Of a stretch of 64,000 nucleotides of DNA, positions 3,823 to 51,378 are shown one piece after another. Every line of letters starts with the position of its first letter. The stretch's first letter is position 1. This DNA comes from a virus. The notes under the pieces are model-generated. The model saw only the letters and a list, made by a program, of their open reading frames with translations, had not been told where the DNA came from and made no database searches. Position numbers and translations under genes: made by a program. The stretch spans positions 36,148 to 100,147 of the IMG/VR virus record IMGVR_UViG_3300042691_035814. One strand, written 5' to 3'.

Positions 3823-4251
3823 ATGAATCAATACATTTTGTTTGTTTATGGACAATTTGAAGACCATGAGGATGTAGAATATTTTTGTAACGAAATTTTT
3901 TCACAATCAGAAACAATTGAATCCGTAAAGTATATTATAGAAAACCTTCAAAACATCATTTTAATCTTTGAATCCTCTACTGACCAAACTAAACTTTCGA
4001 TTGAAATTTTCAATCTTTTGGATAACGAAAATATCAATTATTACTTTCTTTTTCAAAAAAGCGGAATGGTATCTGCACACATTCCAAGTTCAATTAATGA
4101 ACATATTTTCAAATTTAAGGTGGACGAGTTACCAAATACGAATGAGGAAGCGAAGATGGATTTGGATTTAATACTTGACAAAATTAAAAAGGAGGGTATA
4201 GGTAGTCTTACTAAAGATGAAAAAAATTTCCTTGATAATTTTGAAAATTGA
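3823..4251 (+). CDS. Hypothetical protein with DUF6576-like C-terminal motif
   Basis: 142 residues, no signal peptide. The last 28 residues, with the pattern LDLILDKI..EG..SLTKDEKNFL, resemble the short DUF6576 motif at the C-terminus of Bacteroidota rhomboid-family and other proteins. The first 110 residues are alternating beta/alpha with no motif I recognise. The gene sits just before the sigma-factor gene. The motif match is by eye and may be convergent. Confidence 0.6.
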   Translation: MNQYILFVYGQFEDHEDVEYFCNEIFSQSETIESVKYIIENLQNIILIFESSTDQTKLSIEIFNLLDNENINYYFLFQKSGMVSAHIPSSINEHIFKFKVDELPNTNEEAKMDLDLILDKIKKEGIGSLTKDEKNFLDNFEN

Positions 4252-4298
4252 ATTTTTTTAGTTATATTCTTTTTACGCACCCCCATCAATCATTACAA

Positions 4299-5111
4299 AT
4301 GAAAAAATCAATTATAATCAACACAGAAGAAATAAATCAATACATAAAAGATATTCGTAAAATCCCTGTCATAAGTCATGAAAGACAAGAGCAAATTTTC
4401 CAAAAATTAATCGACAATAATTTAACAAAAAATGAAAAAAGAGAACTATACAATGAATTAGTTATAGGTAATCTCAGGTTTGTAATTTCGGTTGCGAAAA
4501 TGTATCAAAATCAAGGGATGGATTTACTTGATTTAATATCTGAAGGCAATTATGGTTTAATCAAAGCAGCGGAAAAGTTTGACCCAACATCAGGGTTAAA
4601 ATTTATTTCATATGCTGTATGGTGGGTAAGACAATCAATAATGGCATCATTAAATGAGAATTCTAGAACAATAAGAATCCCATCAAATCTTGTTCAAGAG
4701 TCACAAAAAATAAAAAAAGAAGAAGTAAAAGAAGAAGATAATTTGTATGAAAGATATAGTGATGACCCATACAATCCAACTAATTTACCATATTGTATTG
4801 GTTTAAGTAAAGAAATTAATGAAGATGGTGACCAACTTATTGATTTACTCCCAAATAAAAATATTGAATCACCGGATGCGATTTTAAATACCCCTGATGA
4901 AATAAAAAAGAAAGTCAATTATATGTTAAGTGTTCTCGATGAAAGAGAAAAAACAATAATTGAAAGATATTATGGATTGACCGGTACTGAATCTAATTTA
5001 GAAGACTTAGGAGAAGAGTTTGGATGTACAAAAGAAAGAATTAGACAATTAAGAGATAAAGCAATAAAAAAACTTAGAAACGAAAGTTTTATGCTATTAA
5101 ACTATTTATAA
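4299..5111 (+). CDS. RNA polymerase sigma factor, sigma-70 (RpoD-like)
   Basis: Sigma-70 family factor of 270 residues that should bind host core RNA polymerase and redirect it to phage promoters. A region 1.2-like start (INQYIKDIRKIPVIS) is followed by region 2 (about 58-125: NLRFVISVAK, DLISEGNYGLIKAA, KFISYAVWWVRQSI) and then region 4 (about 211-265: LDEREKTIIERYYG and a helix-turn-helix ending CTKERIRQLRDKAIKKL). The arrangement is close to the short primary sigma factor of Bacteroidota, so capture from a host is likely. I start at the ATG at 4299, because an in-frame ATG 51 nt upstream would add 17 residues unlike any sigma N-terminus and would overlap the previous gene. A NusG homologue at 13756 may work with it. 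Confidence 0.92.
   Translation: MKKSIIINTEEINQYIKDIRKIPVISHERQEQIFQKLIDNNLTKNEKRELYNELVIGNLRFVISVAKMYQNQGMDLLDLISEGNYGLIKAAEKFDPTSGLKFISYAVWWVRQSIMASLNENSRTIRIPSNLVQESQKIKKEEVKEEDNLYERYSDDPYNPTNLPYCIGLSKEINEDGDQLIDLLPNKNIESPDAILNTPDEIKKKVNYMLSVLDEREKTIIERYYGLTGTESNLEDLGEEFGCTKERIRQLRDKAIKKLRNESFMLLNYL
5103..5110 (+). promoter_or_regulatory. TATTTATA motif, 13 nt upstream of a start
   Basis: Weaker copy of the recurring motif, overlapping the stop of the sigma-factor gene and 13 nt before the start at 5124. Confidence 0.3.
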
Positions 5112-44592: not shown

Positions 44593-44850
44593 ATGCCAAC
44601 ATTTTATGCTGAAGACATCAATATTGATGTAAACGAATTTTTAAGTTCATGTAATAGCGGAGAAATTCAAGAATTGATTGAAGCACTAATTCATGATGGT
44701 CACATTGAAAAACCACGTGAGAAATCCAACGAAAAGATGAGTGCGGGGGAACAAATTTTTGAACACAAATTAAGTAAACTACACGGTATGTGGAATCGTC
44801 TTTCAAAAGAAGACGAAGAAACAATCGTTAAAATCGCAGATAAATTTTAA
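44593..44850 (+). CDS. Small conserved hypothetical protein
   Basis: 85 residues, helical and charged. The stop overlaps the next start by one base (TAATG). Function unknown. Confidence 0.6.
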   Translation: MPTFYAEDINIDVNEFLSSCNSGEIQELIEALIHDGHIEKPREKSNEKMSAGEQIFEHKLSKLHGMWNRLSKEDEETIVKIADKF

Positions 44851-45467
44851 TGAAAGTTCTTGAATTATTCGCGGGTAGTCGGTCTGTTGGCAAAGCAGCA
44901 GAAAAACTAGGTATGGAGGTATTCTCTTCAGATTTGATTCAATTTGAGGGAATACATTATCCTGTAAGTATTTTAGATTTTGATGTTACTAAAGTACCAT
45001 TTAAACCTAATATAATATGGGCATCACCACCATGTACTGGTTTTAGTGTTGCCGCTATTGGTCACCATTGGGGTGGAGGAAAAGGTGCGTACATACCTAA
45101 AACTGAAACCGCTAGATTGGGTATTGAATTAGTTAAGAAGACATTAGAACTTATTGAACATTTTGAACCGGAGTTTTGGTTTATAGAAAATCCAAGAGGT
45201 GTTCTCCGTAAAATGCCGTTTATGGGTAAGTACAAAAGGAACACTGTCACTTACTGTCAATATGGTGATGAAAGGATGAAACCAACAGATATTTGGACTA
45301 ATAGTGAATTATGGGTTCCTCGGAAAATGTGTAAAAATGGCTCACCGTGTCACGTTGCAGCACCAAGGGGATCAAAGACAGGTACACAAGGTAGGTCAAA
45401 CGCATATGAAAGAAGTAAGATACCTGACGAATTATGTATAGAAGTACTTAAAAGTTGTCTATTATGA
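44850..45467 (+). CDS. DNA cytosine-C5 methyltransferase (short)
   Basis: 205 residues. Motif I LELFAGSRSVGKA, catalytic PC in SPPCTGFS (Cys62), motif VI ENP (about 113-115). Usual Dcm enzymes exceed 300 residues, so the target-recognition region and motifs IX-X are missing or very reduced. A short phage-type enzyme is possible. It may protect phage DNA from restriction. Confidence 0.8.
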   Translation: MKVLELFAGSRSVGKAAEKLGMEVFSSDLIQFEGIHYPVSILDFDVTKVPFKPNIIWASPPCTGFSVAAIGHHWGGGKGAYIPKTETARLGIELVKKTLELIEHFEPEFWFIENPRGVLRKMPFMGKYKRNTVTYCQYGDERMKPTDIWTNSELWVPRKMCKNGSPCHVAAPRGSKTGTQGRSNAYERSKIPDELCIEVLKSCLL

Positions 45468-49183: not shown

Positions 49184-49477
49184 ATGAATCCGATAAAAAC
49201 TATAATAGCATTATTTTTAATGGTTGGGGCACCCGCACCAATTGTTTCTGTAAGTTTTTTCGATAGTGAACACAGAGTAATATTAGCACCAATCGCAATT
49301 CTTTCCGCATTTATCGGTACAGGATTAATGTTTGGGTTTACTAATTTTAGAACAAGACCTAAACACATTGGTAATTTCGATAAAGACAACATAAAACCTG
49401 ACATCAATCAAACATGGATGGTTTTCTTTATTACATTGGTAATCAATCTGTTTTTCGCTAATCTTTGTGGTAACTAA
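49184..49477 (+). CDS. Small membrane protein
   Basis: 97 residues with three hydrophobic segments (about 5-24, 33-52 and 76-94). It follows the previous stop by 1 nt. No known family. Confidence 0.6.
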   Translation: MNPIKTIIALFLMVGAPAPIVSVSFFDSEHRVILAPIAILSAFIGTGLMFGFTNFRTRPKHIGNFDKDNIKPDINQTWMVFFITLVINLFFANLCGN

Positions 49478-49501: not shown

Positions 49502-49532
49502 ATCCCCAACAAAATGTTTGGGGATTTTTTTT
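49502..49532 (+). terminator. Rho-independent terminator
   Basis: ATCCCCAA / TTGGGGAT stem with an 8-nt loop followed by eight T residues. It ends the block that starts near 45.6 kb. Confidence 0.9.
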
Positions 49533-49559
49533 GTTTATAATATTTTTTTATTAACTTTG
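49530..49559 (+). promoter_or_regulatory. Host-type Bacteroidota promoter TTTG-N18-TAACTTTG
   Basis: TTTG at 49530-49533 and TAACTTTG at 49552-49559 with an 18-nt spacer match the Bacteroidota consensus (-33 TTTG, -7 TAnnTTTG). It begins within the terminator T-tract and lies 15 nt before the start at 49575, so host RNA polymerase could transcribe this gene early. Confidence 0.7.
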
Positions 49560-49574
49560 TGAAAATAAATTTTT

Positions 49575-50120
49575 ATGAAGACATTAATTGTACATCCTAA
49601 GGATGAATCAACAAGTTTTTTGGATATTGTTTATAACCCAATACCAGATAAAACTGTAATCACTGGTGGAATTAGTAAACAAGAATTACATGAACTTATT
49701 GAGTCACACGATAGAGTTATGATGATGGGTCACGGTTCTCCGAGTGGTTTATTTTCCGTGGGACAATTCTCAAAAACACATGGATTTATTATAGATAGAG
49801 AAACTGTCTCGTTATTAGAACAAAAAGATAATAGTGTCTTTATTTGGTGTAATGCAGATCAATTCGTTAACCGTTACCAACTTAAAGGATTTTATTCGGG
49901 TATGTTTATATCGGAGGTAGGTGAAGCGATGTATTGTGGGTTACCCGGAACAAAACAGACAGTAGTTGATGAATCTAATTATGGTTTTTGTAATATCATT
50001 TCAAATTATATAAATGATGATTGTAAATTAATATACGAAAACGTAAAAAAGGAATATGGACTTATTGCCGAAAACAATCCTGTTGCACAGTACAATAACA
50101 AGAGATTATATCTTTCTTAG
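49575..50120 (+). CDS. Hypothetical protein with caspase-like (clan CD) His/Cys pattern
   Basis: 181 residues. RVMMMGHGSPSG (strand then HG, His53) and SVFIWCNADQF (strand then Cys92) resemble the hhhhHG and hhhhxC catalytic blocks of clan CD cysteine peptidases (caspase/gingipain/CHAT-like). No signal peptide. It is the only gene in the window with an almost perfect host promoter, so early expression is likely. If active it could cleave a host protein; this is an inference from two motifs. Alternatives are a Rossmann-like fold with chance His and Cys. Confidence 0.5.
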   Translation: MKTLIVHPKDESTSFLDIVYNPIPDKTVITGGISKQELHELIESHDRVMMMGHGSPSGLFSVGQFSKTHGFIIDRETVSLLEQKDNSVFIWCNADQFVNRYQLKGFYSGMFISEVGEAMYCGLPGTKQTVVDESNYGFCNIISNYINDDCKLIYENVKKEYGLIAENNPVAQYNNKRLYLS

Positions 50121-50136: not shown

Positions 50137-51378
50137 ATGAGAAAGATAATTATCACTGAAAGTCAGTTTAAAACAGTAATTGATAAATTTATAAACGAGG
50201 CGACATACGGTTCACCAAAAGAAGAAAGAGACGAAATTGAGTATAATATAAATAAATCATTTTCTTCGGGACAATATAAAATTAAAGACAGTAACGAGAT
50301 TGATAACGCAATTTTAGATTTTCAAAAAAGAATGTCTCCAACTGGTAGTTATGTAATTGAGATAATTTCATCTGAATCAAAAGTACCTAATCGTGGAGGA
50401 TTAAAACCTGGTGAATTATCACTTAAAAGAGCCGAAGAAATTAAACGTTATATAGATTCAAAAGGGTTAAACAATATTCAGACAAAAGTAACGTCATTAG
50501 GAGCCCAAGGACCTGAGTGGGAACCTTCAAAAGGTGCGTTTTTTCAAGGTTATACTGATAATCAGTATGTCAGATTGAAGTTATTGGGTAGTAGTCCGAA
50601 AGATAACCCTTGTTTAGTTGATTTACAAATTATTGTTGATTACAAAGGTTCGCAAGGTGTTACATATCCATATCATCAATGTGATGAAGCGTTGTTTAAA
50701 ATGTTCGCGAACGGAGTACCAGTAAAACTTGATGGTGGTGGTGGGGATGTCATAAATTTAAATAATCAATCTGATGGAGGTCCAAGAATTGTTAATTTAA
50801 AAATAAGTGGTGATGATGTTTCACAAATACTAAAAACACAAAAGGATAAAATTAATTTTACGTTACAATGTTTCACGGATACTGAAGGTGGTTGTCATAG
50901 TGATCCGTTACACATAACTATAAAAAATAATAAAGGTAAAATTTTATTAAACCCAACATTTATTACTATAGGTAAAAGAATGAAATTTGGTCAGTGGTTA
51001 AATCTTATGGTAACTGATTCATGTGGTGTTCCAATATCATATAATGAAGCGTCTAATGCTGAAATACAAAACCCTGATGAAAAGTTTTTATCAGATTATA
51101 AAAAATCAAAAGAAAAAATAAAATTGGTGTCAAGTGATAAAAAAGGTGAAATGTACACATCTGAAAGTTTGGCAATAATTTTTGCTTTAGTTATTGATGG
51201 AATTATCAGAATTCCAAAAGATTCTATTCAGAAATATTCCCAACAAATAAATGCATTTAATAATAAACCTTGGCAATATTTAGTTGATTTATGGGAAATA
51301 AGTGATAAACAAATGAAAGAAATTGAAAATATAACTAAAAATTTAAAATCAAATCAAAATATGATTGCAACAAAATAA
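50137..51378 (+). CDS. Tagged protein with OmpA-like peptidoglycan-binding region
   Basis: 413 residues. The tag RKIIITESQFKTVIDKFINEA is followed by a domain with YVIEIISSESKVPNRGG and LSLKRAEEIKRYIDSKGL...VTSLGAQGP (about 75-130), the OmpA_C-type pattern that binds peptidoglycan. The C-terminal 250 residues hold further beta-rich parts and a helical end. No signal peptide, so a virion protein contacting the wall is more plausible than an outer-membrane protein. Confidence 0.65.
   Translation: MRKIIITESQFKTVIDKFINEATYGSPKEERDEIEYNINKSFSSGQYKIKDSNEIDNAILDFQKRMSPTGSYVIEIISSESKVPNRGGLKPGELSLKRAEEIKRYIDSKGLNNIQTKVTSLGAQGPEWEPSKGAFFQGYTDNQYVRLKLLGSSPKDNPCLVDLQIIVDYKGSQGVTYPYHQCDEALFKMFANGVPVKLDGGGGDVINLNNQSDGGPRIVNLKISGDDVSQILKTQKDKINFTLQCFTDTEGGCHSDPLHITIKNNKGKILLNPTFITIGKRMKFGQWLNLMVTDSCGVPISYNEASNAEIQNPDEKFLSDYKKSKEKIKLVSSDKKGEMYTSESLAIIFALVIDGIIRIPKDSIQKYSQQINAFNNKPWQYLVDLWEISDKQMKEIENITKNLKSNQNMIATK

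What the first reader, a model, noticed from the sequence alone, without database searches (positions are those of the whole stretch)
49575..50120. Possible caspase-like cysteine protease under a host-type early promoter
Hydrophobic strand-HG (His53) and strand-C (Cys92), 39 residues apart, recall clan CD catalytic blocks. The gene sits alone behind a terminator and the best host-type promoter in the window (TTTG-N18-TAACTTTG), the profile of an early host-takeover or counter-defence gene. Phage-encoded clan CD proteases are little described, as far as I know.
Basis: inference. Interest (0 to 1): 0.65.

Follow-up and report, generated by a model that had tools for sequence, protein, structure and literature searches.

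The report
Phage-encoded caspase-like protease family
A small gene found in hundreds of viruses of Bacteroidota bacteria has the fold and catalytic pair of caspases, the protein-cutting enzymes of cell suicide; its distant bacterial cousins sit in what look like anti-virus gene clusters, so the viruses may use a borrowed defence enzyme early in infection.

Summary
ORF 49575-50120 (181 aa) is a real gene of a large family: 200 IMG/VR stretches and 21 genome contigs encode relatives, yet it matches no Pfam, NCBIfam, PHROG or PADLOC family. Of 181 positions, eight are identical in all 69 aligned phage, Bacteroidota and distant homologues: D10, L16, G52, H53, G54, L59, C92 and S113. AlphaFold2 (pLDDT 96) places His53 at the end of strand 3 and Cys92 at the end of strand 4, the caspase order. 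A chromosomal homologue's model has SAVED-CHAT as its best PDB match (probability 1.00), with caspases and separase further down. Profile comparison links the phage family to a bacterial set (99%), and that set to caspases (81%), dyad on dyad. The bacterial set is, in 4 of 4 genomes, the last gene of a four-gene operon: C5 methyltransferase, GHKL ATPase, receiver-like protein, caspase-like protein. Other chromosomal members lie among AAA/vWA/peptidase genes. The promoter and terminator are as described; similar promoters precede many relatives. Best reading: an early-expressed clan-CD cysteine peptidase taken once from bacterial conflict systems and used alone against a host or rival target. 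Activity, substrate and timing are inferred, not shown.

The parts
49575..50120 (+). Gene for the 181-aa caspase-like (clan CD) protein
   Evidence: ORF; more than 200 viral relatives; AF2 pLDDT 96; profile bridge to C14
49731..49736 (+). Codons of His53-Gly54, putative catalytic His and following Gly at the end of strand 3
   Evidence: identical in 69/69 homologues; aligned to the catalytic SGHG of C14 through the cassette set
49848..49850 (+). Codon of Cys92, putative nucleophile at the end of strand 4
   Evidence: identical in 69/69 homologues; aligned to the DAC-x-S block of C14 through the cassette set
49602..49604 (+). Codon of Asp10 after strand 1, candidate acidic S1-pocket residue (inference)
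   Evidence: identical in 69/69 homologues; placement after strand 1 in the model
49530..49559 (+). Bacteroidota host-type promoter TTTG-N18-TAACTTTG
   Evidence: sequence; only strict match within 90 bp of any of 86 window genes; enriched upstream of relatives
49502..49533 (+). Intrinsic terminator (8-pair hairpin plus T run) of the preceding gene

Best explanation
The gene encodes a compact, single-domain, cytoplasmic cysteine peptidase of the caspase-like (clan CD) fold with a His53-Cys92 dyad. It is transcribed from its own host-sigma promoter with a very short leader, so it is probably made early, before the phage's own sigma factor acts. It then cleaves one or a few specific proteins in the infected cell, possibly after a basic residue because Asp10 sits where acidic S1 residues sit in metacaspases. 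The most likely purpose is host takeover or counter-defence. The family probably came once from Bacteroidota conflict cassettes, where relatives are the presumed effector; phages kept the effector and dropped the sensor genes. Shown here by computation: family, fold topology, invariant dyad, cassette context, promoter. Inferred: peptidase activity, early timing, specificity, target and purpose.
For: Eight columns invariant in 69 sequences, including G52-H53-G54 and C92. AF2 pLDDT 96 (window) and 92 (L098) with strand-helix order matching caspases. Foldseek: SAVED-CHAT 8tl0 probability 1.00, E 2.3e-4, TM 0.43-0.51; caspase-8 0.85; separase 0.87; gingipain R had the highest TM (0.47-0.48) among the 50 hits listed for the window model. 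hhalign: phage family to cassette set 99%, E 2.7e-18; cassette set to C14 81%, E 1.2e-5, dyad aligned; known pair C14-CHAT 90%; flavodoxin and receiver controls at most 4%. Cassette in 4/4 genomes. Chromosomal members near AAA, vWA and Zn-peptidase-like genes. Phage members form one clade beside chromosomal ones. Promoter; phage sigma factor.
Against: No direct significant hit to any clan CD family for the phage sequences themselves. The window model's PDB matches are mixed with flavodoxin-like folds and none reaches E 0.001. The dyad's side-chain geometry was not measurable. About a third of representative loci have no such promoter within 600 bp. The window gene lies between virion/lysis-type genes rather than among obvious early genes. 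No substrate, toxicity or infection data exist.
Confidence: 0.62

Rival explanations
1. It is an active caspase-like peptidase used against other phages: a phage-borne effector for superinfection exclusion or abortive infection, keeping the defence role of its bacterial relatives.
For: Relatives lie in bacterial defence-like cassettes and AAA/vWA islands; expression from a host promoter would allow activity independent of the phage programme.
Against: No sensor or regulator gene travels with the phage copies; most carriers are large phage contigs without sign of lysogeny here.
Confidence: 0.16
2. It is a peptidase for processing phage proteins, such as virion maturation or release of internal head proteins.
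For: In the window it lies between wall-degrading and virion-type genes; in L101 the domain is fused behind an N-terminal extension in a run of phage-like genes.
Against: Host-type promoters in many relatives; most relatives lie among small auxiliary genes and DnaA-domain genes, not head genes; paralogues in some genomes.
Confidence: 0.1
3. It is a catalytically dead or non-proteolytic mimic that binds a partner of the bacterial cassette and blocks it.
For: Homology to the presumed cassette effector makes a decoy plausible.
Against: A decoy need not keep H53, C92, D10 and S113 unchanged in 69 of 69 sequences.
Confidence: 0.07
4. It is a flavodoxin- or receiver-like Rossmannoid protein whose His and Cys only look catalytic.
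For: Many PDB matches of the window model are flavodoxin or dehydrogenase folds.
Against: Control profiles of flavodoxin and receiver families give 0.2-1.1% for the phage family and cassette set, against 81% for C14 with the cassette set; best PDB match of a homologue is SAVED-CHAT; invariance centres on the His/Cys strand ends.
Confidence: 0.05

Closest known systems
SAVED-CHAT protease (PDB 8tl0)
   Same: Caspase-like fold; best structural match of the chromosomal homologue L098; immune-signalling context (own knowledge)
   Different: SAVED sensor fused to CHAT; the phage protein is a single short domain with no sensor; no significant sequence similarity
Peptidase_C14 (caspases, metacaspases, orthocaspases)
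   Same: His-Gly at end of strand 3 and Cys at end of strand 4; cassette homologues align to bacterial C14 over both blocks (81%)
   Different: No p10-like half recognised; no direct Pfam match
Peptidase_C25 (gingipain R / PorU)
   Same: Window model's highest TM among the 50 listed PDB hits; distant homologue L217 has a weak C25 hit, E 0.03; family-to-C25 hhalign 12%
   Different: C25 enzymes are large secreted proteins; this is a 181-aa protein with no signal peptide evident in the sequence
Response_reg_2 / HEF_HK paraMORC cassettes with C5 methyltransferases (PMC8011034)
   Same: Methyltransferase, GHKL ATPase and receiver-like gene order resembles the four-gene operon that carries the distant homologues
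   Different: The published survey reports Vsr nucleases downstream and does not mention a peptidase; our receiver-like and ATPase proteins did not match PF19192 or PF19191
vWA-MoxR/AAA ternary conflict systems (PMC7159879)
   Same: Chromosomal homologues lie with AAA ATPases, vWA proteins and other peptidase-like genes; that paper describes caspase domains as effectors
   Different: Other components and gene order not shown to match

Membership tests
Clan CD (caspase-like fold) cysteine peptidases | Catalytic His (usually followed by Gly) after strand 3 and Cys after strand 4, in that order | tested here: met
   Model strands 47-52 and 87-91 end at H53 and C92; 69/69 invariant
Clan CD (caspase-like fold) cysteine peptidases | Caspase-like three-layer fold | tested here: met
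   SAVED-CHAT probability 1.00 for L098, caspase-8 and separase further down; window model weaker: gingipain R at rank 4, no hit under E 0.001
Clan CD (caspase-like fold) cysteine peptidases | Detectable sequence homology to a named clan CD family | tested here: inconclusive
   Indirect: phage family to cassette set 99%, cassette set to C14 81%; direct comparison only 0.2-12%
Clan CD (caspase-like fold) cysteine peptidases | Peptidase activity dependent on the Cys | not testable with these tools
   needs an assay
Peptidase_C14 (Pfam PF00656) | Score above the family cut-off | tested here: not met
   No match for any of 46 members
Peptidase_C25 (Pfam PF01364) | Score above the family cut-off | tested here: not met
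   No match for phage members; L217 14 bits against a cut-off of 23
CHAT (Pfam PF12770) | Score above the family cut-off | tested here: not met
   No match; hhalign 0.2%
Response_reg_2/HEF_HK cassette effector | Encoded beside receiver-like and GHKL genes | tested here: not met
   Met by 4 of 4 distant homologues but not by the phage genes
Known anti-phage defence protein families | Match to a PADLOC model | tested here: not met
   No match for the window protein; best among the 46 members E 0.007, for one member only

The most novel reading that the evidence does not exclude
A whole family of phage-encoded, stand-alone caspase-like proteases, taken from the effector position of a bacterial methyltransferase-GHKL-receiver immune operon and turned by large Bacteroidota phages into an early weapon that proteolyses host defence or regulatory proteins; the bacterial operon itself would be an undescribed immune system with a caspase effector.
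Probability: 0.35. Interest if true: 0.85.

Novelty: new variant of a known kind. Interest (0 to 1): 0.62.

Why it matters
Caspase-like proteases are known as bacterial immune effectors; a conserved phage-borne family would show the same tool in the attacker's hands. It gives a name and testable residues to a family present in at least 200 viral stretches and without a match in Pfam, NCBIfam or PHROGs. It also points to a candidate immune operon (C5 methyltransferase, GHKL ATPase, receiver-like protein, caspase-like effector); the published survey of related systems reports no peptidase.

Tried and rejected
Direct sequence searches of Pfam, PHROGs, NCBIfam, PADLOC and PDB gave nothing significant; the weak hits (SopE, S12, methionine aminopeptidase) are chance level. 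The viral structure library gave only Rossmann/flavodoxin-type matches below significance. Plasmid collection: no match. The promoter count in the whole window is at chance level; only its position and recurrence in relatives support it. Upstream terminators in relatives are only slightly enriched (9/58 against 55/765, p 0.03), so not used as strong evidence; the loci share ancestry, so all such p-values overstate. An N-terminal L/I-x-E (prohead cleavage-like) motif in neighbouring genes was tested and is at chance level over the window (6 against 6.8 expected), so virion packaging was not argued from it. The Lak phage copy sits on a very long branch and its place in the tree was not interpreted.

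Full report
What is there. The window is bases 36148-100147 of a 100,147-base virus record. ORF 49575-50120 encodes 181 residues. The next gene upstream, 49184-49477, ends before an 8-pair hairpin with a T run at 49502-49525. A Bacteroidota-type promoter, TTTG-N18-TAACTTTG, follows at 49530-49559, about 15 nt before the ATG. The next gene downstream starts at 50137, so the gene stands alone on its upstream side only.

Promoter. Three strict matches exist on the + strand of the window against 1.65 expected, so the number alone means nothing. Position does: of 86 window genes only this one has a strict match within 90 bp upstream. In 58 representative loci, 23 family genes have a looser match within 60 bp against 101 of 777 other genes, and 36 of 58 within 500 bp against 148 of 726. 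In many relatives the -7 box ends four to five bases before the ATG, which would make the transcript almost leaderless. The phage has its own sigma factor at 4248-5111 (Sigma70_r2 and r4), so a host-type promoter suggests expression before phage-directed transcription. That is inference.

Family. A protein scan of IMG/VR confirmed 108 relatives and a profile scan 200. Genome contigs gave 21, nearly all Bacteroidota MAGs; one was binned as a methanogen (L101). Phage records add Lak megaphages and a gut phage scaffold. No profile library has a family for it. Some phages carry two copies.

Catalytic residues. Over 69 sequences (47 phage, 18 from genome contigs, 4 distant homologues) eight columns are identical: D10, L16, G52, H53, G54, L59, C92 and S113.

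Fold. AlphaFold2 gives pLDDT 96 for the window protein and 92 for chromosomal homologue L098. Strands 3-6, 26-29, 47-52, 87-91 and 105-108 alternate with helices, a small hairpin follows H53, and C92 follows strand 4. Foldseek with L098 ranks SAVED-CHAT 8tl0 first (probability 1.00, E 2.3e-4), with separase and caspases further down. With the window protein itself no hit passes E 0.001; among the 50 listed, gingipain R has the highest TM-score (0.47-0.48), among flavodoxin-like folds.

Bridge to clan CD. A search of 401 genomes of one Bacteroidota order found two distant homologues and a phylum search two more. In all four genomes the homologue is the last gene of one operon: C5 methyltransferase, an 810-840 aa GHKL ATPase (HATPase_c_3 plus HATPase_c; split into two reading frames in L347), a 240-aa receiver-like protein, the caspase-like protein. 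hhalign gives 99% (E 2.7e-18) between the phage family and this set, and 81% (E 1.2e-5) between this set and bacterial C14 domains, with GHG on the catalytic SGHG and the Cys block on DACxSG. For scale, the known relatives C14 and CHAT give 90%, C25 and C14 20%, CHAT and C25 1.6%; for the phage family and the cassette set, flavodoxin and receiver controls stay at 1.1% or below. Direct comparison of the phage family to C14, C25 or CHAT gives only 0.2-12%, so the link is indirect and is supported mainly by fold and dyad.

Context in bacteria. Members on Bacteroidota genome contigs recur beside AAA ATPases (5 loci), vWA proteins (4), SprT/DUF2268-like Zn-peptidase candidates (5) and an unnamed 375-aa family (4). 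Some of these contigs may be misbinned phage; L095 in Daejeonella lies in a 222-kb contig among ordinary chromosomal genes. The operon resembles the Response_reg_2/HEF_HK/C5-methylase cassettes of PMC8011034, which does not mention a peptidase; our proteins did not match those two Pfam models. AAA/vWA systems with caspase domains are described in PMC7159879. A role in immunity is therefore likely but not shown.

Context in phages. The gene travels without those partners. In one large group it follows a DnaA-C-domain protein (Bac_DnaA_C) and small auxiliary genes; in the window it lies between wall-degrading and virion-type genes. The 46 phage members other than Lak form one clade (support 89/92) beside the chromosomal ones, with the operon set as outgroup. 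One transfer from bacteria to phages is the simplest reading; support is moderate and long branches are present.

Mechanism. Most likely an early, cytoplasmic, sequence-specific cysteine peptidase acting on a host protein. Orthocaspases cleave after basic residues with a His-Cys dyad (PMC6426788 abstract). Asp10, after strand 1, would match the acidic S1 residue of metacaspases (recalled from knowledge of trypanosome metacaspase 2, not tested), hence the guess of Arg/Lys specificity. A bacterial caspase homologue, MaOC1, lies beside a toxin-antitoxin pair and is reported to cleave the antitoxin (title of PMC7935541), a precedent for a regulatory substrate. Purpose (counter-defence, takeover or exclusion of rivals) cannot be told apart here.

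Noticed in passing
L220:7908-13043; L219:8144-13369; L346:6272-11354; L347:8043-13126: Conserved four-gene operon (C5 methyltransferase, GHKL ATPase, receiver-like protein, caspase-like protein) that looks like an undescribed immune cassette; in PADLOC only the methyltransferase matches strongly.
   Followed up: partly
L222:7913-17110; L083; L086; L089; L090: Bacteroidota islands combining AAA ATPase, vWA proteins, Zn-peptidase-like, retropepsin-like and caspase-like genes, with an unnamed duplicated 375-aa family (starts like MPNVWLVRSPEYS).
   Followed up: partly
window 44850-45467: A 205-aa protein at the cut-off of the C5 DNA methylase family (22.4 bits against 22), possibly a short or divergent phage methylase.
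   Followed up: no
upstream of the family gene in L013, L017-L022, L024-L028, L035: The promoter spacer often holds a near-palindrome (TTTGGAATATTCCAAA-like) between the -33 and -7 boxes, also seen before other genes of the same phages: a possible operator.
   Followed up: partly
L101:5350-6288: Caspase-like domain fused behind a roughly 210-residue N-terminal extension in a phage-like contig binned as a methanogen.
   Followed up: no
window 4248-5111: Phage-encoded sigma-70 family factor (regions 2 and 4).
   Followed up: partly
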